DNA of 64,000 nt. Source: Triparma columacea. Taxonomy: Eukaryota; Sar; Bolidophyceae; Parmales; Triparmaceae. A program made the translations under genes and the position numbers. The notes beneath the pieces are model-generated. The model was given only the letters and a program-made list of their open reading frames with translations. It was not told where the DNA came from and ran no database searches. Position 1 is the stretch's first letter; each line of letters opens with the position of its first letter. Positions 20,736-57,700 of this stretch are shown in pieces. Where the stretch lies: positions 20,011 to 84,010 of the forward strand of contig BRYA01000238.1 in assembly GCA_030267965.1 (NCBI GenBank). The letters are read 5' to 3'.

Positions 20736-23626
20736 TTACATTTGCTTAATAGCCTCCACTCCTGCCCTGACTCCGCTCTCGAAGGCTCCATTGAGGGTCG
20801 CTGAGCCGACGTGGTCTCCAGCTACGATGACTCCCTCGGGTGCTCCGAATTCCCGCAGCTTGCCGTTGACGTTCGCAGGGGTTTTGCAGCCGTACTGGGC
20901 GGGCTGGGCGTTGGCAATGTCGTAGACCTTTAGAGTCTTCCAATTATTGACAGCTGCATTTGGGAACCAGCACTTAAGGTGCGAGCGGACTGCGAGGTCG
21001 AGTCTCTCCTCGTCGACCTTTCCGTCGTCCCCCCTAAAGAGGTCCATGGTGGGGCCCAGGACTGTTACGCTGGCGAGGTGCTTCCCTGGCGGTGCGTATG
21101 TCTCAGAGACAACCGAGGGGAAACACATGTTGTTGATGGGCTTCTCCATGGTTCCCTTCTCCTGGCAGCCGTTAAGGATGAGGATTGGGTCCGTGACCGG
21201 GGGGGTTCCGAGTGAGTAGTACACGCACCCCACCGACCGTTGCGGTGTTCCGTCTGTCCCCCCTCCCTCCCCCTTCACGAGCTTGTTTGCAGCTGGGCCT
21301 TCCGTGGCGACAACAATCTGCCCAGCCTTCATGTTGTCTACGGCAGTTTCAATGAGCCAGCTGCCCTCATCTGCCCCTTGCATTGGTTTGACTCCTGTGA
21401 CCTTGTTTGCGGTCAACAACTCCATTCCCTTGCGCCAGTTTCTCAAGTCCTTCTCGAGAAGCCCTGGCACAGCGCCCATCCCCTCCTCGGGGAGACAAGC
21501 GGAACCTTCGGTGAACATCTTAAAGATGAAGTGGAACATGCGTGATGACTGGCTACCCAGTGGGGCTAGGTAAATCCCCCCCAGGAAGGGCTCGAAGAAC
21601 TGGCAAATGAACTGGTCGGAGAACCCCCACCTCACTTTGAGGGCGGTCAGGGTGTTTGTCTCAGGCTACGATGATACGGGAAGGGGGGAGTTAGCTACTG
21701 GAGGAGGGAGGCGGGCCGCAAAATGATTGTATGTCGGTCATTTTTGTCCCGCTTGCTCATGCTTAAAGATCGCCTCTCCTCCTTCCTCTTGCACAACCCT
21801 CCTCGCACATTGCCCCTCTCACCTCGTTGAAGAGATCGTCGCTACTGCTCTTGATGACGTGTACGAGCAAAGGGATGACCTTAAGCTTGTCCATGAAGGA
21901 GCCGACAGGGGAGATAACGGCCGCAAAAATATCCTGGGGGCGCCTGAGAGGATCAGCCACGCGACTGATGTAAAAGACGTTTGAGTCCCCACCACACTTC
22001 ACACCTCCCTTCCACCCATCTGAGGTCACCACAAAGGCTCCGGGCTGGAAAGGTCGCAGCTTGAGCCTGTTGTAGTTGAGAAGTTTCTTCGACTGAGGAT
22101 AGGAATCGATGAAGACAGCAAAGCCGCAGTCGAGGGTGAAGCCGTCAATTTTGTCAGAGCGGACCCTGCCCCCTAAGGTTTCCTGCGCCTCAATCACGGC
22201 AACGTTGCTATCTGGGGCCTTCCTCTTGATTGTAGAGGCTGCTGCGAGGCCGGCAGGGCCACCCCCAATGATGGCAACGTCGAACTCTGCCTTGGGCAAA
22301 GCGGCGAGGAGGGCTGTGACGAAGCGAAATGAGTAGATTTAGCTAGCTGCTGGTTTGTTGTCTCTTTTTAAGTTCTAATTCATTCTCACCTTCTTCCTCC
22401 GCAACGCGAGCAGCCTCCGCGATTTCTGTCTCCATACGAATGCGAGCTTCCTCAGCAAGGCGTGCTTCCTCAGCAAGGCGTGCTTCCTCGGCAAGGCGTA
22501 CTTCTTCGGCGAGGCGTGCTTCCTCGGCAAGGCGTGCTTCCTCGGCAAGTTGTGCTTCTTCGGCTAGGCGTGCTTCCTCAGCAAGGCGTGCTTCCTCGGC
22601 AAGGCGTGCTTCCTCAGCAAGGCGTGCTTCCTCGGCAAGGCGTGCTTCCTCGGCAAGGCGTGCTTCCTCAGCAAGGCGTGCTTCCTCGGCAAGGCGTGCT
22701 TCCTCGGCAAGGCGTGCTTCCTCGGCAAGGCGTGCTTCCTCAGCAAGGCGTGCTTCCTCGGCAAGGCGTGCTTCCTCGGCAAGGCGTACTTTCTCTGCAT
22801 ATTCTGCACCCGCCTTTTCCTCAGCTTCCACCTTGGCCTTTTCCTCAACTCCGACCCTTGGCTCTTCCTGCTCGGCGGAAACCCTTGCCTCCTCTTCTGC
22901 GTGGTCCTCCACGGCCTTCTGCTCTTCGACAAGCCTTTGCTCGACGAGTCGCTCCTCCTCCCGCCTTCTCTTTTCCGCCGCGTCCTTCTCCTCCTCAAGC
23001 CTCTTCGTTTCCTTTTTCTTAGCCTCAATCTGAGCCTGCTCCTCAACCTGCCTTTTCTGTTCCTTGATCCTCTCCTCAAGAGCGCGCTGCTCTTCCATCC
23101 TTCGCTCAAGCTCCATCTTCCTCTCCTCCTCGATCTTCTGCTTCTTGGCCTCCTCTGCAATCTCCCTCTCCTCTCTCTGTTTCGCCAGAATCCTTTCTGC
23201 CTCTTGCTTAGCCTTCAGCTGGGCCTCCCTCCTTTCCTCCTCGATCCTAGCAAGTCTCTCCATCTCCGTTTTCTCGGCCTTTTCCCTTTCTAGCTTCGCT
23301 TCCTCCTCCTCAGCCAGCCTCTCCGACTCACGATATTTCCGAGAAACTATTTTCCTCAGCTTCCTAGTAACTTTCTTAAAAATAGACCTAACTATATCCC
23401 TCTTCCTCTTACGTTCTCCATCAGATTTTGCATTAGAGTCCGACGTTGACATGTGCAGGGTGGAGAAAACTTGGTTGTCTCTGCTCGGTGGTAAATGGTA
23501 CTGAATAATGGGGCTCAAATGAGATCCCGACGCTCTCACTTTCGCAAGTTGAGTAGCTACAGGCACATAAAACGCCTGAGCGACCCCCCATATCACGAAA
23601 ATCACGAAAATCGCGAAAATTCGCAT
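20736..23626 (-). CDS. Plastid-targeted coiled-coil / FAD-dependent oxidoreductase fusion
   Basis: Three exons (23626-22390, 22313-21823, 21665-20736) splice in phase 1 then phase 0 to 885 residues. The N-terminus is a bipartite plastid presequence: signal peptide MRIFAIFVIFVIWGVAQA, then Phe19 at the predicted cleavage site. A long Glu/Arg/Lys coiled coil follows, ending in about 19 copies of LAEEAR. Exon 2 opens a Rossmann FAD-binding motif, VAIIGGGPAGLAAASTI, with VIEAQETLGGRVRSDKIDGF, typical of the amine-oxidase/phytoene-desaturase superfamily. The C-terminal FAD motif is PEGVIVAGDHVGSATLNGAF. The oxidoreductase has no Met at the exon 2 boundary, and the 76-nt GTGAG...CACAG intron keeps frame, which supports one fused gene. 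The alternative is two genes with an unseen start. The substrate is unknown; carotenoid or related plastid metabolism is a guess. Confidence 0.75.
22444..22788 (-). repeat. 18-bp tandem repeat encoding LAEEAR
   Basis: About 19 nearly identical 18-bp units (plus-strand form GCTTCCTCGGCAAGGCGT) encode LAEEAR hexads inside the coiled coil of the oxidoreductase fusion. Variants read LAEEAQ and LAEEVR. Near-identity at the DNA level, not only the protein level, points to recent expansion or homogenisation. Confidence 0.93.
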
Positions 23627-48500: not shown

Positions 48501-50781
48501 GGTGCGGGCAACCTTATTGTACATCTTGATGATCCTCTTGGCGTCCTTCCCGGCGAGCACGTTCTGGTTGGACTCAAACTGCTTCATGGGCTCCTCGATG
48601 CGCTTTAGGAGGTGGCGCGACCAGGTGATGTTACCAGCGACCGGGGGAAGGTTGCGAGGAATAGGGGGATCATGTTTTTGCTTCTCGTAGAGTTGCTGGA
48701 CCGACTCGAGCTCCATTCCGTAGTTCTGGAAAATAATGTTGAGCTTCGAGTCAAGGTCGGACTTGAGCGTCTACGTGGGGGTTGGGGAGTGGAGGGGGTG
48801 GGGGTTAGCCAGAGTATTTTCCATATTGTCGCCTCTAATCCAATCTCACCTCGCGCTGCAGGATAGTCTGGAACTTGTGGAGCAAGTTGAGAGACTGCTC
48901 GATGGACACAATGTTCTCAAACGACTGGTTGATGAACTGCTGAAGGGACCCCTCAAGGTCAGAAATGCGAACATTGAACTCGACGTAGTCACGATCAAAC
49001 TTGTTGTTATGGTAGTCGAGAAGGTCATGGGACTTGGAGCGGAACTCCTTCTTGATCTTGTGGAAACGATCAATGAGCGACTCCATGCCCTCGAGCTTGT
49101 TCTGCGAGAGAGAGGTAAACTGCTCAATGGTGGAGAACATGTCGATAAGTTTGATGATGCGGCGGCAGAAGAGGTCGAACTTGCCAAAGATCTGGTGCGA
49201 CTCAAAGTCGAACTGCTTCCCCTTGGGCATCTGCCTGAGCTTGCTCTTGGTGATCCTGTACTGTTCCTGGTAAGCCTCATTGAGCTTAAGGCAGGACTCG
49301 AGCTGGCGAACGAGCTCCTGGGGGTCCTTCTCCCAGAGGGAGTCCTTGTCATTGTCCGACTCGATGGACTGCTTGCAGTTGCTAATCATCTGGTCAGTGA
49401 TCTTGGAGAAGAGGTTCGTCATGCGATCTTTCGTGTTGTAGTAACGAGCGATGGTGTGGATCATCTTGATAGAGTTCATGAGCGCAGGGAGAGTGTCGAT
49501 GATGGTCGACGCAGTCCCAGAGTACAGCGGCTCGATGAAGCGCTCGAGGGTGAAAAGATACTTGACATTGTCCTTGGCCTCATTGGCGTTCTCGGTGATC
49601 TGCACGTCAATATTCTTCCAACGCTTGATCAGGTGCTGAATTTTGTGCTTGGTGAGATCAGGGTTGGCCTTGGTGAGGGTGGAAAGCAGACCATAGACCT
49701 GCTTGCAATCCTTGCGTTTGAGCTGCTCAGTGATGGAGGTCAGACGCTGCATGCGGTTGCGCCAGAACTCGAGCTCGGCCTTGGGACCGGCGTCGTTGGA
49801 CCCAGAGGAGTCAGCGTCAAGGTACTGATCGATTTTGTCGCACCATTCCTCCAACAACTCCTCAAAGTGAGGGATGAGGTCGGGCATGGCATTGATGCGC
49901 TGTTGGAAGTTGCGCGTATCAAGAGACTCGTAACCTTTGATCTTGTCAGCATCGGGGCGGCGAAGCTCCAATCCGCCGGAGAGGGACTTGAGGGAGTCTT
50001 TCAAGATGCCTTGGAAATGCTCCATCTCCCCAGTAAAGTCAGACTTCTGCTCGTCGTCAACCTTGCCCCATTCGGTGGACTGCGGCGAGCGAAGCGAGTC
50101 GCGAAGAGGGGGTCTTGTGTTAGTGGATATGGGGGTGTTGAGCGCACTCCTCCGCCGCCTTACGCACCTGGACAAATAGTTCACCGTAAGAACCAGAAAG
50201 AAGAGACTCAATGGTTTGCAAGGGAGACTCGGAGATCTCTCCGTAGAGAAGAGAAGAGTCATTCGATACTGCAGTGTCGACAGGAGTAGCGGACGTTCGA
50301 ATAAAGTAGCAGCACTTTGTATTCAAGTAGTTGGAGAATCCATCACTGAAAAAGAGTTCAGGCTCGGAAGCCTTCGATATATCCTCGCCAGAGGCCGAGG
50401 GGGAGTCGCCCACATTAATCTTGGACTGATAGTGGACGAACAATTTTGAAGGACCCTCCCCAGAGAAGAGGGCCTGATTTGAAACGGAGGAGTTGAGACG
50501 GGGGGGAAGGGGGGAGGGAAGGTGTTAGAGGCGTCTCGGGGGGGGGAAGTGGGGGGGCAATAAAAGGGTATTTGGGAGGATGCGGGAGGATGGGGCGCAA
50601 TATTGACTATTGATACAAATGTGGCTCCAAATCAAGGGATAAGGAAAGAACCGAGAGGGAGGAGCTTCACTTACATTCAATCTGTTGATATTCTCAGTCT
50701 TACGCACAAAGGACTGGACCTTGGGATCGTCCATTTCCTCATAGCACTCGACTATCTTCGCTATGACGTAGCGGTGGCGAG
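36542..50781 (-). CDS. Axonemal outer-arm dynein heavy chain (first exon missing in gap)
   Basis: The motor subunit of ciliary outer dynein arms. Exons visible are 50781-50675, 50473-50168, 50079-48850, 48770-45192 and 45094-36542, all in phase, encoding about 4590 residues. The 5' exon must lie at or beyond the N gap because the first visible exon starts in phase 1 with no Met. The tail (DHC N1/N2) includes FSGEGPSKLFVHYQ and RLRKHYNHF-like helical segments. The motor shows AAA1 GPAGTGKTETTKDLG with CFDEFNRI (about residue 1870), AAA2 GPSGGGKSCIFKVL, AAA3 GAEGTAKTSVMLMFL and AAA4 GVGGSGKQSLTRLASF, then the stalk coiled coil and C-terminal domain ending YPNYWALRGVALLCNQ. GTAKT at AAA3 favours the gamma/DNAH5-8 class over beta, with moderate confidence. 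The 8.5-kb last exon is unusually long. Confidence 0.93.
50080..50167 (-). mobile_element. Introner-like element filling a dynein intron (antisense copy)
   Basis: This 88-nt intron (GTGCGT...CCGCAG on the minus strand) consists almost entirely of the reverse complement of a core also found in two introns at 55.1-55.7 kb. On the plus strand it reads from GGCGAGCGAAGCGAGTCGCG at 50083 through GTCTTGTGTTAGTGGATATG to about 50160. The reverse complement of the GAGCGAAGCGAG box supplies the 3' splice region. Confidence 0.85.
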
Positions 50782-50871
50782 CTGAGGGGAAAAATTGGGT
50801 TTGTGTGAGATCGGGTTCGATATGAGCGGTTGGATAGATAAGGGGCCTCTGGGAGGGGGGGTGGACAGGGG

Positions 50872-51036
50872 GGGGGGGGGGGGGGGGGGNNNNNNNNNNN
50901 NNNNNNNNNNNNNNNNNNNNNNNNNNNNNNNNNNNNNNNNNNNNNNNNNNNNNNNNNNNNNNNNNNNNNNNNNNNNNNNNNNNNNNNNNNNNNNNNNNNN
51001 NNNNNNNNNNNNNNNNNNNNNNNNNNNNNNNNNNNN
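50872..51036. other. Poly-G tract and assembly gap (147 N)
   Basis: An 18-bp G run (50872-50889) leads into Ns from 50890 to 51036, followed by more G-rich sequence. The gap hides the first dynein exon (minus), the start of the LisH gene (plus) and their shared promoter. Confidence 0.97.
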
Positions 51037-52120
51037 GGGAGGCGGAGGCGGTTTGGGGGGGGCTGGAAAGGTGGATTTCTCGAGTATAAGCCCGTCAAAT
51101 ACAGCGTCTTTGGCGCTCGTTTACGACTTTCTCTCGAGCTTCGGCTTGGAGAGCACGCTCAGGGTGCTCCAGGCAGAGACAGGAGTAAGGCAGGATAGCA
51201 GCAACATGAGCCTTGAGGCTGTGTCCAAGGTCATGGGGTACGATGTTGTAACGGCGCAAGGAGGGGGGGATAAGTGCGCCCTGGGTAGAATAGTTTCCGG
51301 CGGGGGGCGGGGGGGTGGGGTTATGGCGGCGGGTATGGGGGGGGGGGTGAGGGGAGGGGGGGGCGGAGGAGGGGGGGCGGCGGCTGTGGCGGCTGTGGCA
51401 GCTGTGCCCCCTCCCCCACCTCAGGCGTCGAACGCCGTCGTCGGCAACCACGTGGTCGGGGCTGGAGGTGGCGGAGGGTCCAGGAGCTCGCCCAAGAAAA
51501 TTGCACCCCCCGCAATCAACCGTAATGTGAGACTTGACATCTCTGACGACTCCGTGGAAGACATCAACCCCCCGACGTCAAAGCTAGCCCCTATTTCAAC
51601 CTCGCCCAGTAGCGGAGGTAGTGGTGGGGGGAAAACCTCACCTAGCGGAAAGCCCAAGCTAGCCAGTCTCTCGACCTCCCCACCGAATGTGGCAGACCCG
51701 TTCAGTAAGCCCAAGCTGACAAGCCCTAGCGAGTCCCTTGAAAACAGTGTGGAGTTGAGCATGGATAAGAGCTTTGACAAGAGCATGGACAAGAGCTTGG
51801 ACAAGAGCTTGGACAAGAGCAAAGAAAAAAGCTTAGAGAAGAGCTTGGAGAAGAGCTTGGAGAAGAGCTTGGAGAAGAGCGCGGATAAGAGCTTGGAGAA
51901 GAGCTTGGAGAAGAGCTTGGAGAAGAGCGCGGATAAGAGCGTGGAGAAGAGCATGGAGAAGAGCAACGACAAGTCAATGACGTCCTCCAAGGGCAACCCC
52001 TCTTCGCCTGCGAGGACAAACGAAGAGAGCTACGAGGACGACTATGAGGAAGACGAATACAGCGGGGGCTCCTTCGACGACTTTGAGGAGAGCATCGGGG
52101 AATCGACTGACCTGCCTTGA
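51037..52120 (+). CDS. LisH-domain protein with KSLE repeats, 5' end in gap
   Basis: The frame is open from the gap to a TGA at 52118-52120. The start codon is not visible; the first Met after the gap (MSLEAVSK) lies inside the conserved region, so the true start is in or near the gap. A LisH motif, LALVYDFLSSFGLESTLRVL, opens the visible protein. LisH domains dimerise and are common in centrosomal and basal-body proteins such as FOP and OFD1, and in cytoskeletal scaffolds. Gly/Ala- and Pro/Ser-rich linkers follow, then about 18 KS-x-x repeats (KSLEKSLEKS) and an acidic Asp/Glu/Tyr tail. It is head to head with the dynein gene, which hints at co-expression for cilium assembly; that is inference. 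Confidence 0.7.
51757..51971 (+). repeat. 12-bp tandem repeat encoding KSLE/KSMD units
   Basis: About 18 units of a 12-bp motif (AAGAGCTTGGAG and variants with GAC, GCG or ATG) encode alternating Lys-Ser-Leu-Glu/Asp. The stretch is likely a highly charged helix or disordered linker with dense Lys-Ser phosphosites. Confidence 0.92.
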
Positions 52121-52228
52121 GGGGCATAGGGAGTGGAGGCAAGGGAAAGAGATGGATAGATGGAGAATGGAGAGCTTAATGAATTTGACACTCTGTTTAA
52201 AACCACAAACATATACACATACACACCA

Positions 52229-53111
52229 TTAGCCCTCGTTATCGTCCCCGCCAGTCTTGCACACGTACAAGTAGTGGCAGCTTGTAGGCTTACCAACCGG
52301 GTCGTAGTCAACCACGGCCTCACTTGAAGCCGGCTTGGGCAAAGTCTCGATGTTGACGGCCCAGGAGAAGTCCTGGTTCCCAAGTATCGCCATCCTCTCC
52401 GATGGAATCCCCACAGACACGCACATATATACTCCCCCCGGTTTTAGAATTCTAGCCACGTGAGAACAGAATTTGTTGGCATTGTCCTCTGAAGCCTCTC
52501 CGGTGAGGAGGGTGTCGAGGCATCTGAGGGAGGGTGGGTGGGTGTGAATTAGTTATAAGCTCCGGGAGAACCAGGCTATTATGCTTAGTGTTAATGCCGC
52601 GCTCACCCCTTGTCAATGACTGCATCAAAAGACTCATCTTCGAACTCCATGTAACGGCAATCCATAATCTGCCAAGTCATACCGGGCATCGCCTGCGTCC
52701 TCTCAATCATTTGCTGCGAAAAAGAAGAGGAGGAAGGAAGAGTTGAGTGAGTGGATGATTGGTGCGAGCCATGACATTCATGACATTTATTGTCGTTCTC
52801 ACCTCAACCACCACAGTCGAAATGTCAATGTTCGTAATGTTCCGGAAACCATCCTCGTACATTTGTTCGGACAGGGTACTGTTGCCTGCACCCACATTCA
52901 AAATCTTGTTATTTGGGTGTAATTGCTCCTGACAGTACATCTGAATCGCCTGGTAGTTCTGGTACCACTCGAAAGGCTGGAGGACGGGGACGGAGGGGAG
53001 GGAAGGGGGTTAGAGGGGGTGGTTGTAAGGGTTGCAGGGCACAGTTGTTCTCACCTCCTTCTCTTTCTTGTACCTCTCGTCCCAGTAGGCGAGCCGTGAG
53101 TAGTGTGCCAT
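52229..53111 (-). CDS. EEF1AKMT4/METTL13-like protein methyltransferase
   Basis: A class I S-adenosylmethionine methyltransferase of 210 residues. Exons are 53111-53055, 52976-52803, 52713-52607 and 52523-52229, joined in phase. The start MAHYSRLAYWDERYKKEKE followed by PFEWYQNYQAIQ is the YW.eRY...FEWY block typical of the EEF1AKMT4/METTL13 group. Motif I is ILNVGAGNSTLSEQM; the next acidic motif is NITNIDIST; motif IV is DAVIDKGCLDTLL, created only by joining exons 3 and 4. Family members methylate lysines of elongation factor eEF1A; the substrate here is inferred. It is divergent from the phosphatase-kinase gene. Confidence 0.9.
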
Positions 53112-53582
53112 TGGGAGTTTTAGGGTGGGTGGGGGGGGGGGGGGGGGAGTGTGGGGTGACGTGACGGAGGGTTAGGCGACTAGCGAGGCGGGGTGGCCCG
53201 AAGAAGAGTTGCCGGAATTCTAATTGAGGGGTTGGGGGAGCGAAGGGGGGAGAGAAGGGAGGACCCGTGCGCAGTCCAGGTTAGGAAGACAAAGTTCCAG
53301 GGGACGGGAGTGTCGTGGGGGACGACCGATTATTGCTAGCAACTAAATGGTCCTCAGGATGAGATGGGATAAGTCTGAGGCAATCAGCAGAAATAAGAAA
53401 GACCAGAGCTGAGTGTCTGAGCAGTCAGTGAGGTCTGGAGCAAGCGCTAACTGCCTCACAAAAAAGTCACATACCCCTTCACTGAAAGATACATTTTCTC
53501 ACCACACCAAGAGAGCCTGTTAATAGTTATATCGCCCCAAGGACGGAATCGGTATTTTTTGCGTATAAATAGCTCAAAAGGA
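53112..53582. promoter_or_regulatory. Divergent intergenic region
   Basis: 471 bp between the methyltransferase and phosphatase-kinase starts. A 16-bp G run lies at 53131-53146. TATAAATA at about 53564, 20 bp before the phosphatase-kinase ATG, is probably too close to act as that gene's TATA box unless the leader is very short. Confidence 0.4.
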
Positions 53583-56500
53583 ATGGGAAATTCCTGTGGG
53601 GCGGCTAGTGTCGGGGATGGGAACAGATATGCTGCTGGTAGAAATGATGGACCGTCGCCACTGACCAAATCGCAGATTCAGGCGCGCATAGTGTGCTCCG
53701 AAAATGCCGAGAAAATGGAGGTTGAATGCAAGGACTGCAAATTTACCATTGTCCATGCCCACCTCTCGCAGAGGGGGTACTATCCTCATGATCTGAACAA
53801 GGCGAACCAGGACGCGTTCTGCTCCCACCCCTTATACAACGGCGAGAAGAACGTGGGCCTGTGGGGCGTTTTTGATGGTCACGGCAGTGTGGGGGATCAC
53901 GTTAGCACCTTTGCCAAGATTGGGATTCCAAAGCACCTGAAGGCGATTCTGAAGAAGGACGGGCCCGCGAGTGGCAAGATCAAAGACGCTACGGAGGAAG
54001 ACATAATGACCTCCACCCACAAGGCCTTCGTGGAGACGAATAGGGAGTGCGGCAAGCAGAACTTTGACAGGTGCGGCGAGCGAAGCGAGTCGCGGAAACG
54101 GCGAGCGAAGCGAGTGGCGGAAACGGTTGCGCAAAGGCATTATAGACGGCACGTCACTTCAAGGGCAAACACACATTATGAACTATATTTACTAACTTCT
54201 GCAACTTTGCTCTTCCCGCTCGCAGCAACCTGAGTGGAACCACAGCCATTACTGTTATGGTCAGGAACAACATCATGTTTGTCAACAACGTGGGGGATAG
54301 TAGGGCTGTGGTTGCGGTCAAAACTCCCTCTGGTGGTCTCAAAGCGGAGCACCTCAGTATCGATCAGACTCCATTTAGGAAGGACGAGAGGGAAAGGGTC
54401 AAGAAGTGTGGGGCTGTAGTTATGACAATCGACCAGATTGAGGGCCTCGAACCCATCCACGAGAACTGGGGTATAAATCTAGGAGAGGAAGTTGACGAGT
54501 CCGGCGATCCTCCGAGGGTATGGGAGAGTAATATGCAAAGACCCGGCTGCGCTTTCACCCGTTCCATCGGCGACCACGTCGCTGAGAAGATTGGCGTCTT
54601 CGCCGAGCCCGAGCCACTCATACGGGCGATCGACGACGAAACAGCCTTCGTCGTTATAGCGAGCGACGGAGTCTGGGAGTTTTTAACCTCCCAGTCCGTC
54701 GTAGACATGGTGAACAAATTTTCAGGCCCCAACGGACCCCTTGACGCCTGCAAGGCCGTCGTCGCCGAGTCGTACAGGCTCTGGCTCCAGTACGAGGTCC
54801 GAACAGACGACATAACCATGATCACCCTCAGGATCGACGACTACAAGGAGTTAGATGGCAGCGAGGGCATTAGTTCAAGCAGCAGCAAGGTCAGCGCTCG
54901 CAGGACCATCAGGGGCCAGAAGACCATTATGATCCAGGAGAGCGCGTCCTCCGGCAACGTTCAGAGGCCCGTTAGGAGGCAGATGAGCAAAGCCAAGAGA
55001 AGGATGATTGCAGAGAGGAGGAGTACTGAGGTCAACTCCGCCATGGACAAGTTTGTGTTGGAGGAGCATGCCAAGCCCAAGACGGAAGAAGAGACGGCAA
55101 GGATAGGGCAGCACATACAGGTGAGTGGTGCGGCGAGCGAAGGCGGCGAGCGAAGCGAGTCGCGAAGAGGGGGTCTTGTGTTAGTGGATATGGGGGGTGT
55201 TGAGCGCACCTCTCCGCCTTGCCCATTCTTACCCCCGCCTTGCCCATTCTTACCCCCCCCCCCCCCTCCCCCCCTTCCCCCCCCAGTCCAACTTTTTGTT
55301 CCTCCACATGACTGCCAAGCAGAAGGCCAGCGCCATTAGCTGCATGGAGAAGATCGATGTCTCCGCCGGGGACGTCATCATCAAGCAGGGGGACGCTGGC
55401 GACAAGTTCTACATCGTTGACAGCGGAACCTACGACGTCGGCGTCAGGAACGAGGACGGCGTGGTCATGACCGTGTTGACATACGAAAACCCGGGAAGCG
55501 CCTTTGGAGAACTGAGTTTGATGTACGGAAAGCCCAGGGCGGCGACAGTCACTGCGACGAGTGGTGGACAGTTGTGGGCGATTAACAGGTGAGCGACGAG
55601 CGAAGCGAGTCGCGAAGAGGGGGTCTTGTGTTAGTGGATATGGGGGTGTTGAGTGCACTCCTCGCCTTGCCCATTCTTACCCCCGCCTTGCCCATTCATT
55701 CTTACCCCCCCTCCCCCCCCCCCTCCCCACAGGATCGCATTCAGGAGCTGCATGATGAAGAGGAACACCGCGATGGACCTCATAAGCATCCTCAAGAAGG
55801 TGGACATCCTCAAGCCCCTGACCATCCCCCAGCTCCAGAGGCTCAGCGACTGCATGGCTGAGGAGACCAGGGAGGAGAACGACGTCGTCATCAAGCAGGG
55901 GGAGACCGGGGAGAGGATCTACATCGTGGAGGAGGGAGAGCTCATCGTTACCCAGAAGGACGAAGACAGCGGCGCAGAGAGGGAGATGATGAAGCTCAAG
56001 AAGAACGACTACTTTGGGGAGAGGGCACTCATGTACAACGAGGAGAGGTCCGCGACCGTCGTCGCGTGCACCGAGGTTAAGCTGTTGACGTGCAACAGGC
56101 AGGCGTTCGAGGAGGTCGTCGGCGACCTCAAGCTCATCATCGCCAAGGACCAGAAGTCCAGGGAGAGCAGGATCCAGAGGATGAGCACGTACAGGGTTAA
56201 CGCCAACATCGAGAAGGTCAAGGTCCTGAGGGGGGCGGACAGGGACATGTTCACGGTCAAGCTCGCGATCGGGGACGGGGACGGGAACCTGGACACGGAG
56301 CAGGCCATCTGCGGGAGCTTCAATTTGACCAAGGGCAAGATGCCCGTCATGTACGGCATGAAGGCGTTTAATAAGGCAGCAGTTATGAAGAGCGGAGCGG
56401 GGGGGGGGTTGGAGCACGAGAGGAAGATTCTGGGCAGGTGGGTTTGGGGCGGCGAGCGAAGCGAGGGCGACGAGCGAAGCGAGTTGCGGAAGGGCGGCGA

Positions 56501-57406
56501 GCGAAGCGAGTCGCGGAAGGGGATTAAGAAGGAGGAGGAGGTGCTTTTCCTAGGTGGTTGTGCAGTAGTTCTTTAACTAACCCCCTCCTTCCCCCCTCCC
56601 CCCTCAGTTTCGACGGTCAGTCAGCATACCTCCCAATCCTCCTGGGAACGTTCCAAACGAAGATCTGCTGTTTCTCCGTCTACCAGCAGCCCCTAACAAT
56701 AGACCTCGGTCAAATAATGGGTGACGAAACCACAAAAATATCAGAGGACGACTGCAAGTTCTTCATCTCCGGAATTGCATTAGGGCTGGGATTCCTGCAG
56801 AAGGAGGGGTACATGATAAGGATGGTTAACCCGAGCAGTGTACTTATCACACAGAACGGGTACCCTGTATTAAGCGATCTGAGCAAGTGCAAGAAGCTAA
56901 CCGGGCAGAGGAGCTTCACAATGTGCGGAGAGCAGAGTTACATGGCCCCTGAGATGATAACCGGCGAGGGTTACGACTTCGCGGTGGACATGTGGAGTTT
57001 GGGGGTCCTAAGTTACGAGATGATTATTGGGCGTAACCCCTTCGGTACTGGTGAGACGGGCGAGACCCAGGTGTACCAGAGCATATCATCCTGGAGTGAC
57101 GGTGGTTTCGGTTCTGACTCCAAGTCCGTAGAAGTATCCGTAGACTGCATCGAGTGCGTCGACTGCCTCATGGCTCGGGACCCCAAGAAAAGGCTGGGGA
57201 GCAACGGGATCCACGACGTTAAGGGGTGCGACTGGTTGATGGACGTACACTGGGAGAACATGGGTAAGCAGGCGCTGGAAAGCCCGGTTGAGGAAATGTG
57301 CAGGACGGCGCTTTACCAGGATAACAATAAACCGGGCGTGGAGAGATTCATGCAGGAGGTGGAGAAGGGGGAGGAGATTGATGACGCAGCGTTTAAGGGA
57401 TTCTAG
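53583..57406 (+). CDS. PP2C phosphatase - two cNMP-binding domains - PKG-like kinase fusion
   Basis: Five exons (53583-54070, 54226-55120, 55287-55588, 55733-56437, 56608-57406) join in frame to 1062 residues. The start MGNSCGAAS carries an N-myristoylation/palmitoylation signal. The PP2C domain has NQDAF, GVFDGHGSVGDHVS, VNNVGDSRAVV, FTRSIGDHVAEKIGV and VIASDGVWEFL. Two cyclic-nucleotide domains follow, with phosphate-binding cassettes GSAFGELSLMYGKPRAATV and YFGERALMYNEERSATVV. The kinase retains the VAIK lysine (YGMKAF, ~770), helix-C Glu (EHERKIL), MAPEM and DMWSLGVLSYEM. The catalytic HRD loop reads IRMVNPSSVL and DFG reads SDL. The same order is known in plant PKG (At2g20050 type), which also lacks a normal HRD. 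It probably couples cyclic nucleotides to dephosphorylation at membranes. Four introns contain introner-like sequence. Confidence 0.9.
54071..54225 (+). repeat. Intron with two GAGCGAAGCGAG boxes
   Basis: Intron 1 of the phosphatase-kinase gene starts GTGCGGCGAGCGAAGCGAG and repeats the box 28 bp later (units end GGAAACG). It lacks the GTCTTGTGTTAGTGG part of the core, so it is a diverged or partial relative. Confidence 0.7.
55121..55286 (+). mobile_element. Introner-like element, sense copy A (intron 2)
   Basis: The core at 55144-55219 is nearly identical to the dynein intron copy, with one extra G in the G run. Downstream there is a tandem CCGCCTTGCCCATTCTTACC unit (two copies) and a C-rich acceptor. 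Upstream a partial second GCGAGCGAA is present. Confidence 0.85.
55589..55732 (+). mobile_element. Introner-like element, sense copy B (intron 3)
   Basis: The core at about 55596-55665 matches copy A and the dynein copy with few differences (GAGTGCACTCC instead of GAGCGCACC). It is followed by the same GCCTTGCCCATTCTTACC repeat and C-rich acceptor as copy A. Confidence 0.85.
56438..56607 (+). repeat. Intron with three GAGCGAAGCGAG boxes
   Basis: Intron 4 of the phosphatase-kinase gene (GTGGGT donor) contains three copies of GAGCGAAGCGAG within about 65 bp (56454-56510), each followed by a GGAAGG-like spacer. A further single box lies at about 57415, nine bases after the stop codon. Confidence 0.75.
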
Positions 57407-57700
57407 GGGGAAGGCGAGCGAAGCGAGCCGTGGGGGGGGATTGGGGGGGGGATTGAAAGGGGGGGGGGGAAATGAATAGACACACCAATGACTGTTCTAT
57501 AAAAAAGGGTGTTGGCATTGTTCTTCTTTTTAAGCTAACCATGTGCAAGTAGCCTCTTGTGCACGGGAATGACGTTCGCCCCTTTCAATGAACGTAAAAG
57601 CCCACACTATTGATAGCGTTCCTCCAGAGTTAAAAAAGTCTTCCCCTCCCCCCCCCCTCAAACCTCCCCTTAAAATCCTCCCTCTAACCTTCCTTCCCCC
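57407..57700. other. Convergent 3' region
   Basis: 294 bp between the phosphatase-kinase stop and the mL53 stop. It contains one GAGCGAAGCGAG box (about 57415), G-rich runs and an AT-rich stretch near 57490-57535. No gene is seen. Confidence 0.5.

What the first reader, a model, noticed from the sequence alone, without database searches (positions are those of the whole stretch)
50080..55732. Introner-like element family in dynein and phosphatase-kinase introns, in both orientations
A ~70-bp core containing GTCTTGTGTTAGTGGATATG is almost identical in three introns of two unrelated genes: minus orientation relative to transcription in the dynein intron (50080-50167, where it fills the intron) and sense in two phosphatase-kinase introns (55121-55286, 55589-55732). 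Near-identity in non-coding sequence between unrelated genes means recent copying. Introners are established in the stramenopile Aureococcus and in Micromonas; a bidirectionally spliced family in this lineage would be notable.
Basis: partly seen in the sequence, partly recalled or inferred. Interest (0 to 1): 0.88.

Follow-up and report, generated by a model that had tools for sequence, protein, structure and literature searches.

The report
Two-way introner family in Triparma
A roughly 90-base mobile sequence in a small marine alga has recently been copied into genes about fifteen times, and because both of its strands carry splicing signals the cell appears able to cut it out as an intron whichever way round it lands.

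Summary
Confirmed and extended. The core lies at 50082-50156, 55143-55218 and 55593-55663, inside introns 50080-50167, 55121-55286 and 55589-55732. The genome is almost certainly Triparma columacea (Bolidophyceae). It holds 15 matches: 13 long copies, 5 sense and 8 antisense to their gene, and 2 partial antisense copies. With hand-chosen splice sites, 12 of 13 stay open at least 48 codons on each side. Seven junctions, 3 sense and 4 antisense, are supported by homologous proteins. Two antisense introns are 96% identical end to end in unrelated genes. The antisense strand carries donor GTAAG, branch CTAAC and acceptor CAG. In the sense strand that donor's reverse complement, CTTAC, sits 21-39 nt before the acceptor in 5 of 5 copies. 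An 88% identical environmental relative lacks the 55121-55286 intron (protein level). Target-site duplications and terminal inverted repeats are not general. A 14-bp end motif with 412 genomic copies sits beside the matching splice site in many other introns. Introners inserting in both orientations are already reported, so this is a new variant, not a new kind. No RNA-seq was available.

The parts
50080..50167 (-). 88-nt intron of an outer-arm-type dynein heavy-chain gene, almost wholly made of the element; element antisense to the gene (donor GTGCGTAAGG, branch CTAAC 40 nt before the end, acceptor CCGCAG)
   Evidence: open frame 100 codons on each side when spliced; joined protein aligns to dynein heavy chains across the junction with a small gap nearby; my gene finder chose a longer intron, 50080-50674
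50082..50156 (+). element copy 1 (75 nt, 100% to query)
   Evidence: (C233:70092-70166)
55121..55286 (+). 166-nt intron of the PP2C/cNMP/kinase gene containing element copy 2 in sense; CTTAC branch candidates 34 and 55 nt before the end
   Evidence: gapless junction in homologues; uninterrupted in at least 3 paralogues and in environmental relatives P0004 and P0005
55143..55218 (+). element copy 2
   Evidence: C233:75153-75228, 96%
55589..55732 (+). 144-nt intron of the same gene containing element copy 3 in sense; CTTAC 28 and 53 nt before the end; 5-nt direct repeat ACAGG at the junctions
   Evidence: gapless junction in homologues
55593..55663 (+). element copy 3
   Evidence: C233:75603-75673, 97%
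54071..54225 (+). intron of the same gene starting GTGCG + end motif (two tandem motif copies); related by its end, different body
56438..56607 (+). 170-nt intron of the same gene with three tandem end motifs (one with a mismatch) after the donor and a 3' half that is found at 4 other places
57414..57427 (+). end motif just after the stop codon of the kinase gene: the motif is not confined to introns
53583..57406 (+). PP2C/cNMP-binding/protein-kinase gene, 5 exons, 1062 aa, four motif-bearing introns
   Evidence: closest named protein Triparma pacifica 78%

Best explanation
This is a small, recent introner-like family: a non-coding element of about 90 bp that inserts into genes at the DNA level in either orientation and becomes a spliceosomal intron. 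On the other strand the reverse complement of the donor (CTTAC) most likely acts as branch site. A donor is then supplied by the neighbouring exon or by a one-base change of the terminal GCGAGC repeat (to GTGAGC), and an acceptor by a C-rich tract or duplicated end plus a CAG. Shown here: copy number, both orientations, frame-restoring introns, homology at junctions, signal positions, absence of one intron in a relative. Inferred: actual splicing, use of CTTAC as branch, origin of the sense splice sites, the DNA-level route. The enzyme that moves it is unknown.
For: 15 matches, 13 of them over at least 59 nt at 96-100% identity. 5 sense and 8 antisense; 12 of 13 splice to open frames with hand-chosen sites, and 8 of 13 intron lengths are not multiples of three. 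Antisense introns L020 and L021 are 96% identical end to end, L024 85-86% to both, in unrelated genes. Junctions without gap in homologues: L021 in 119 of 120 listed relatives (1 lacks the region); L020 in 115 of 120, one of these being the published T. columacea model itself (3 partial, 1 one-residue insert, 1 with the element); window kinase introns in 5 of 5 chosen homologues; L016a; L017 inside one EMP70 match. P0122 from an environmental relative carries a 31-aa insert at the L020 junction that equals the translated L021 element in 26 of 31 residues (hand count). CTAAC or TTAAC in 8 of 8 antisense introns; CTTAC 21-39 nt from the end in 5 of 5 sense introns; in the branch zone of 123 motif-free predicted introns CTTAC is enriched 4.9-fold (11 occurrences), CTAAC 5.6-fold (44). 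Close relative without the 55121-55286 intron. At least three paralogues uninterrupted at both cNMP-domain intron sites.
Against: No RNA-seq. L022 lacks coding flanks (17 and 15 codons open). My gene finder agrees with the hand-chosen intron in 6 of 13 copies, takes the same strand with other boundaries in 4 (window 50082, L016b, L023, L024) and the other strand in 3 (L017, L020, L022); I overrode the strand on Pfam or homologue evidence for L017 and L020 only, and L023 and L024 have no homologue across the junction. L017, L022 and L023 carry long non-element parts, as expected of insertion into older introns. L020 coding scores are weak near the junction. The presence/absence case rests on environmental proteins whose DNA I could not fetch. 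Neither TSD nor TIR is general, so the insertion mechanism is open.
Confidence: 0.82

Rival explanations
1. Secondary insertion: an ordinary short repeat inserted into introns that already existed, so it did not create them.
For: L017, L022 and L023 have long intron parts unrelated to the element. The end motif also lies outside introns (57414-57427; several sampled sites without a predicted intron).
Against: L020, L021 and L024 are nothing but element from donor to acceptor; L019 is element plus a duplicated end; the window 55121-55286 intron is absent from relatives.
Confidence: 0.12
2. RNA-mediated intron transposition by reverse splicing, as proposed for fungal introner-like elements.
For: No general TSD or TIR; exact intron boundaries in L020, L021 and L024; 4 of 13 copies (L017, L022, L023, window 50082) lack part of the far end and none lacks the motif end.
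Against: Reverse splicing keeps the gene's orientation, yet 5 of 13 copies are in the opposite orientation to the canonical intron.
Confidence: 0.06
3. Miniature inverted-repeat DNA transposon of the Micromonas/Aureococcus introner type, with TSDs and TIRs too eroded to see.
For: Both orientations; L016a has a 7-nt repeat CACTCAG and one other motif intron a 9-nt repeat; copies cluster locally.
Against: Direct-repeat lengths of 31 motif introns resemble those of 123 control introns (at least 6 nt: 3 of 31 against 2 of 123); mean TIR score 6.0 against 5.4. The pure antisense copies L020, L021 and L024 have 1-2 nt repeats. The donor form of the motif, GTGAGCGAAGCGAG, has only 74 occurrences against 48 for its control.
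Confidence: 0.3
4. Convergent splicing motif or microsatellite growth at intron ends rather than a mobile element.
For: 42 of 89 fetched end-motif sites have no related body among those 89; tandem motif copies are common.
Against: For the core family, 59-75 nt at 96-100% identity in unrelated genes excludes convergence. It remains possible for part of the 412 motif sites.
Confidence: 0.05

Closest known systems
Introner elements of Micromonas pusilla and Aureococcus anophagefferens (Huff et al. 2016; not held; known here from recall and from passages in PMC9860276 and PMC10228655)
   Same: Short non-coding multi-copy elements that make introns in unrelated genes; insertion in both orientations is attributed to that paper by the review (passage).
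   Different: Those are described as MITE-like with TSDs and TIRs; these features are not general here. Here one strand carries a complete intron and the other a second, overlapping set of signals. Different lineage (Bolidophyceae).
Introners of Florenciella and Aureococcus sp. MAGs (Gozashti et al. 2022, PMC9860276; Results section and passages of Methods)
   Same: Marine stramenopile introners; some families co-opt both splice sites, others carry both.
   Different: One family here seems to do both, depending on orientation. Triparma, Bolido* and Parmales do not occur in the main text; its supplement was not read.
Fungal introner-like elements (as described in PMC9860276)
   Same: No general TSD or TIR; element ends coincide with intron ends in the pure copies.
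   Different: Opposite orientations occur here, which reverse splicing does not predict.
Amoebophrya introners (PMC7789003, passages)
   Same: Repeats at intron ends.
   Different: GT-AG sites and a single recognisable end motif here; no general inverted repeat between the two intron ends.

Membership tests
Introner (broad sense, Gozashti et al. 2022) | Similar introns in non-homologous genes, at least 5 copies | tested here: met
   15 matches on 11 contigs, 13 long; host proteins differ: dynein, PP2C/kinase, dynein intermediate chain, EMP70, signal peptidase, CRT-like and others
Introner (broad sense, Gozashti et al. 2022) | Similarity runs to near both splice sites | tested here: met
   L020/L021 96%, L020/L024 86% end to end with hand-chosen sites; not met for L017, L022, L023
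Introner (broad sense, Gozashti et al. 2022) | Spliced from the transcript | tested here: inconclusive
   frame, homologues and, for L020, the published gene model (P0121, 100%; BRAKER2 with protein hints only) agree; no RNA-seq
Introner (broad sense, Gozashti et al. 2022) | Intron gained recently (presence/absence) | tested here: met
   one position only: window 55121-55286 absent in P0005 (88%) and P0004 (72%), both judged genomic because they read into an intron elsewhere; protein level, my reading
MITE-type introner (Huff et al. 2016) | Target-site duplication | tested here: not met
   31 unselected motif introns against 123 controls; of 13 core copies one has 7 nt, one 5 nt, the rest 1-4 nt at the junction
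MITE-type introner (Huff et al. 2016) | Terminal inverted repeats | tested here: not met
   mean end-pairing score 6.0 against 5.4 in controls; 2 of 31 reach 12 or more against 1 of 123
Reverse-spliced introner-like element (fungi) | Always in the orientation of the host gene | tested here: not met
   5 sense, 8 antisense among 13

The most novel reading that the evidence does not exclude
An ambidextrous introner: one roughly 90-bp DNA element encodes two overlapping intron programmes on opposite strands, in which the reverse complement of the 5' splice site (GTAAG) serves as the branch site (CTTAC). It belongs to a superfamily of several hundred sites sharing only a 14-20 bp end motif, which spreads to neighbouring introns by a DNA-level route without TIRs or TSDs.
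Probability: 0.4. Interest if true: 0.78.

Novelty: new variant of a known kind. Interest (0 to 1): 0.64.

Why it matters
How genomes gain introns in bursts is a long-standing question, and few active systems are known. Here near-identical copies in both orientations, a named, sequenced alga and environmental relatives that differ at one site would allow intron birth to be watched between strains. The dual use of donor and branch sequences is a concrete, testable reason why an element could survive landing in a gene either way round. It also speaks against reverse splicing as the general route for this family.

Tried and rejected
TIR search and TSD search across 31 unselected motif introns and 123 control introns: no general signal. 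The donor form of the end motif, GTGAGCGAAGCGAG, as a sign of inverted ends: 74 occurrences against 48 for the backwards control, a weak excess. A hairpin in the end motif (GCGGC-GA-GC-GAA-GC-GA-GTCGC): of five pairs tested on 119 sites, three were paired in more sites than all but 21-43 of 2000 shuffles, one reached 134 of 2000 and the outermost 669 of 2000; relatedness explains such numbers easily, and DNA folding gave z near 0; not used. The far-end 17-mer at C202 looks like a chance match. A viral-contig scan for the core found nothing. PDB searches with L017 and L016b gave no match. Pfam gave none for L016b, L019, L024 and the dynein piece, nor for L018, which was given without its first 35 repetitive residues; for L020 the Pfam match lies downstream of the junction. 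Controls for predictor bias: with the motif replaced by random bases 34 of 57 near and 1 of 57 far, with N 31 of 55 and 0. A search for an autonomous partner or transposase was not made.

The first gene model missed intron 56438-56607 and read part of it as exon; corrected by hand. Splice sites of the 13 core copies were chosen by eye from the sequence, then tested for open frames.
Full report
OBSERVATION. The core 20-mer is present exactly three times in the window and in none of 100 shuffles, and a 71-nt block around it repeats.

ORGANISM. The genome held (37.85 Mb, 789 contigs) is smaller than the published 43.0 Mb in 1,858 scaffolds (PMC10328945, Table 1 passage), so it may be a filtered version. 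T. columacea genes were annotated with protein hints only (annotation section read), so the published model is not RNA evidence. The window's kinase had as closest named protein one of T. pacifica (78%).

COPY NUMBER AND PLACE. A 75-nt query finds 15 matches on 11 contigs: 13 over at least 59 nt at 96-100%, two of 42 and 48 nt at 87 and 85%. Thirteen copies were examined: sense L016a, L016b, L019, window 55143, window 55593; antisense L017, L018, L020, L021, L022, L023, L024, window 50082. With splice sites chosen by hand, 12 of 13 give one frame open at least 48 codons on each side within the 300 nt tested, ten of them at least 99 on both; L022 gives 17 and 15. Eight of 13 introns are not multiples of three. 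The two partial copies lie in antisense introns of one C58 gene.

WHERE THE GENE FINDER DISAGREES. The simple gene finder that I wrote% of 171.7 kb (window plus 27 loci fetched around motif sites) intron. It gives the hand-chosen intron in 6 of 13 copies (L016a, L018, L019, L021, both kinase introns), the same strand with other boundaries in 4 (window 50082: 595 instead of 88 nt; L016b: 166 instead of 181; L023: 78 instead of 123; L024: 344 instead of 83) and the other strand in 3 (L017, L020, L022). A second, local scoring gave L023 as 123 nt. For L017 the EMP70 match through the junction and for L020 the homologues decide for the hand-chosen intron; L022 stays open.

JUNCTION EVIDENCE FROM HOMOLOGUES. 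Sense: L016a aligns without gap at the junction to dynein axonemal intermediate chain 3; both window kinase introns align without gap to PKG chains and, with the two other motif introns of that gene, to 5 of 5 homologues that I picked from 120. Antisense: L021 is gapless at the junction in 119 of 120 listed relatives, the last lacking the region; L020 in 115 of 120 (the published T. columacea protein among them), with 3 partial, one 1-residue insert, and P0122 with 31 extra residues; L021 also aligns to the solved chloroquine resistance transporter. L017 lies within one EMP70 match. The dynein junction aligns with a small gap nearby. No homologue spans the junction of L016b, L018, L019, L022, L023 or L024. 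P0122's extra residues, VRMGKAEKSALTTPISTNTRPPLRDSLRSPQ, equal the translated L021 element in 26 of 31 places (hand count): an environmental relative carries the element at the same place, read through by an ORF caller.

HOW BOTH ORIENTATIONS CAN SPLICE. The antisense strand reads GTAAGAATGGGC...CCACTAACAC...CTCGCTTCGCTCGCCGCAG. CTAAC (TTAAC in L024) is 40 nt from the end in 5 of 8 antisense introns and 64, 77 and 91 nt in the other three. In the 5 sense introns there is no CTAAC or TTAAC, but CTTAC, the reverse complement of the GTAAG donor, lies 21, 39, 28, 34 and 28 nt from the end. In 123 motif-free predicted introns CTTAC is enriched 4.9-fold in the branch zone (11 against 4 occurrences), next to 5.6-fold for CTAAC; the gene finder rewards CTAAC but not CTTAC. 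Sense copies have extra C-rich sequence or a duplicated end after CTTAC that restores the branch-to-acceptor distance; L019, with one CTTAC only 5 nt from the end, has a second at 28 nt. The pure antisense copies L020, L021 and L024 have no AG at the exon end (TAT, TCG, ATG), whereas all 5 sense copies do: one family seems to carry both splice sites in one orientation and to borrow them in the other. Use of CTTAC as branch site is an inference.

GAIN. P0005, an 88% identical environmental protein covering 53% of the query, runs uninterrupted through the place of the 55121-55286 intron. Just after the place of the 55589-55732 intron it turns into foreign residues and then the next exon in a shifted frame (my reading), so it comes from unspliced sequence and its lack of the first intron is real. 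It thus has an intron of other sequence at the second place. P0004 (72%) is continuous at all four motif-intron places and ends by reading into what looks like an intron. Paralogues at C179, C690 and C254 are uninterrupted over both cNMP-domain intron sites. Gain in the T. columacea line at 55121-55286 is the simplest reading; loss elsewhere is not excluded.

WIDER FAMILY. The end motif GCGAGCGAAGCGAG occurs 412 times against 57 for the backwards control (tandem motif copies may inflate the control). I took the first 63 of the 100 listed sites in contig order, without selection. In 56 of 63 an intron with a score of at least 22 was found. The motif lay within 40 nt of the splice site on its own side (donor if sense, acceptor if antisense) in 35 of 56 and of the opposite site in 0; with the motif replaced by random bases 34 and 1 of 57; by N 31 and 0 of 55; random spots in motif-free introns 39 and 34 of 113. 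Some sites share an intron, so they are not independent. Several bodies follow the motif: of 89 fetched sites 47 fell into 12 groups, some of them tandem copies in one intron, and 42 stood alone. Whole-genome matches for three other bodies number 5, 21 and 31. One pair (L056, L067) is 90% identical end to end with unrelated exons. Matches in opposite gene orientation occur in several families (output partly cut). The motif also occurs outside introns (57414-57427).

LOCAL CLUSTERING. Pairs within 6 kb: 5, 5 and 10 for three families where 0.03, 0.04 and 0.10 are expected under uniform placement (matches closer than 300 bp merged). This fits local DNA-level copying; other causes were not tested.

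MECHANISM OF INSERTION. Neither TSD nor TIR is general. Four of 13 core copies lack part of the far end and none lacks the motif end, which resembles 5' truncation of a retroposon, but numbers are small. Opposite orientations argue against reverse splicing. The enzyme is unknown and was not searched for.

LITERATURE. Gozashti et al. 2022 (PMC9860276: Results section and passages of Methods) describe 548 families in 175 genomes and allow for opposite-orientation insertion. A review (PMC10228655, passage) says that Huff et al. 2016 reported insertion in both orientations; that paper is not held. Searches: introner with both orientations found only that review; the phrase 'spliced in both orientations' 0 papers; Bolidophyceae with introner 0 papers; introner with antisense or bidirectional gave 9,801 papers of which 15 were listed and none read; introner alone 67 papers, 40 listed. 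Within these limits I saw no report of this family; subscription journals and preprints are not covered.

Noticed in passing
window 55309-55475 and L076 (C483:34200-36600): A 167-bp piece of the kinase exon is copied at 97.6% DNA identity into what looks like an intron of an unrelated gene on C483: recent copying of a coding fragment into an intron.
   Followed up: partly
L025 (C58) and L074 (C117): One gene on C58 has four, and one on C117 three, mutually similar motif introns in a row, as if introns had spread along the gene.
   Followed up: partly
window 57414-57427: End motif followed by a G-rich body directly after the kinase stop codon, outside any intron.
   Followed up: no
window 51704-51997 and 22339-22878: Tandem repeats with 12-bp and 18-bp periods; the first translates as a repeated KSLD/KSLE-like peptide.
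   Followed up: no
C423:21379-31105: Seven matches of one repeat family (query) within 10 kb.
   Followed up: no
window 50840-51036: A long G run borders an assembly gap (N) at about 50890-51036; many introns look G-rich after the donor and C-rich before the acceptor (by eye).
   Followed up: no
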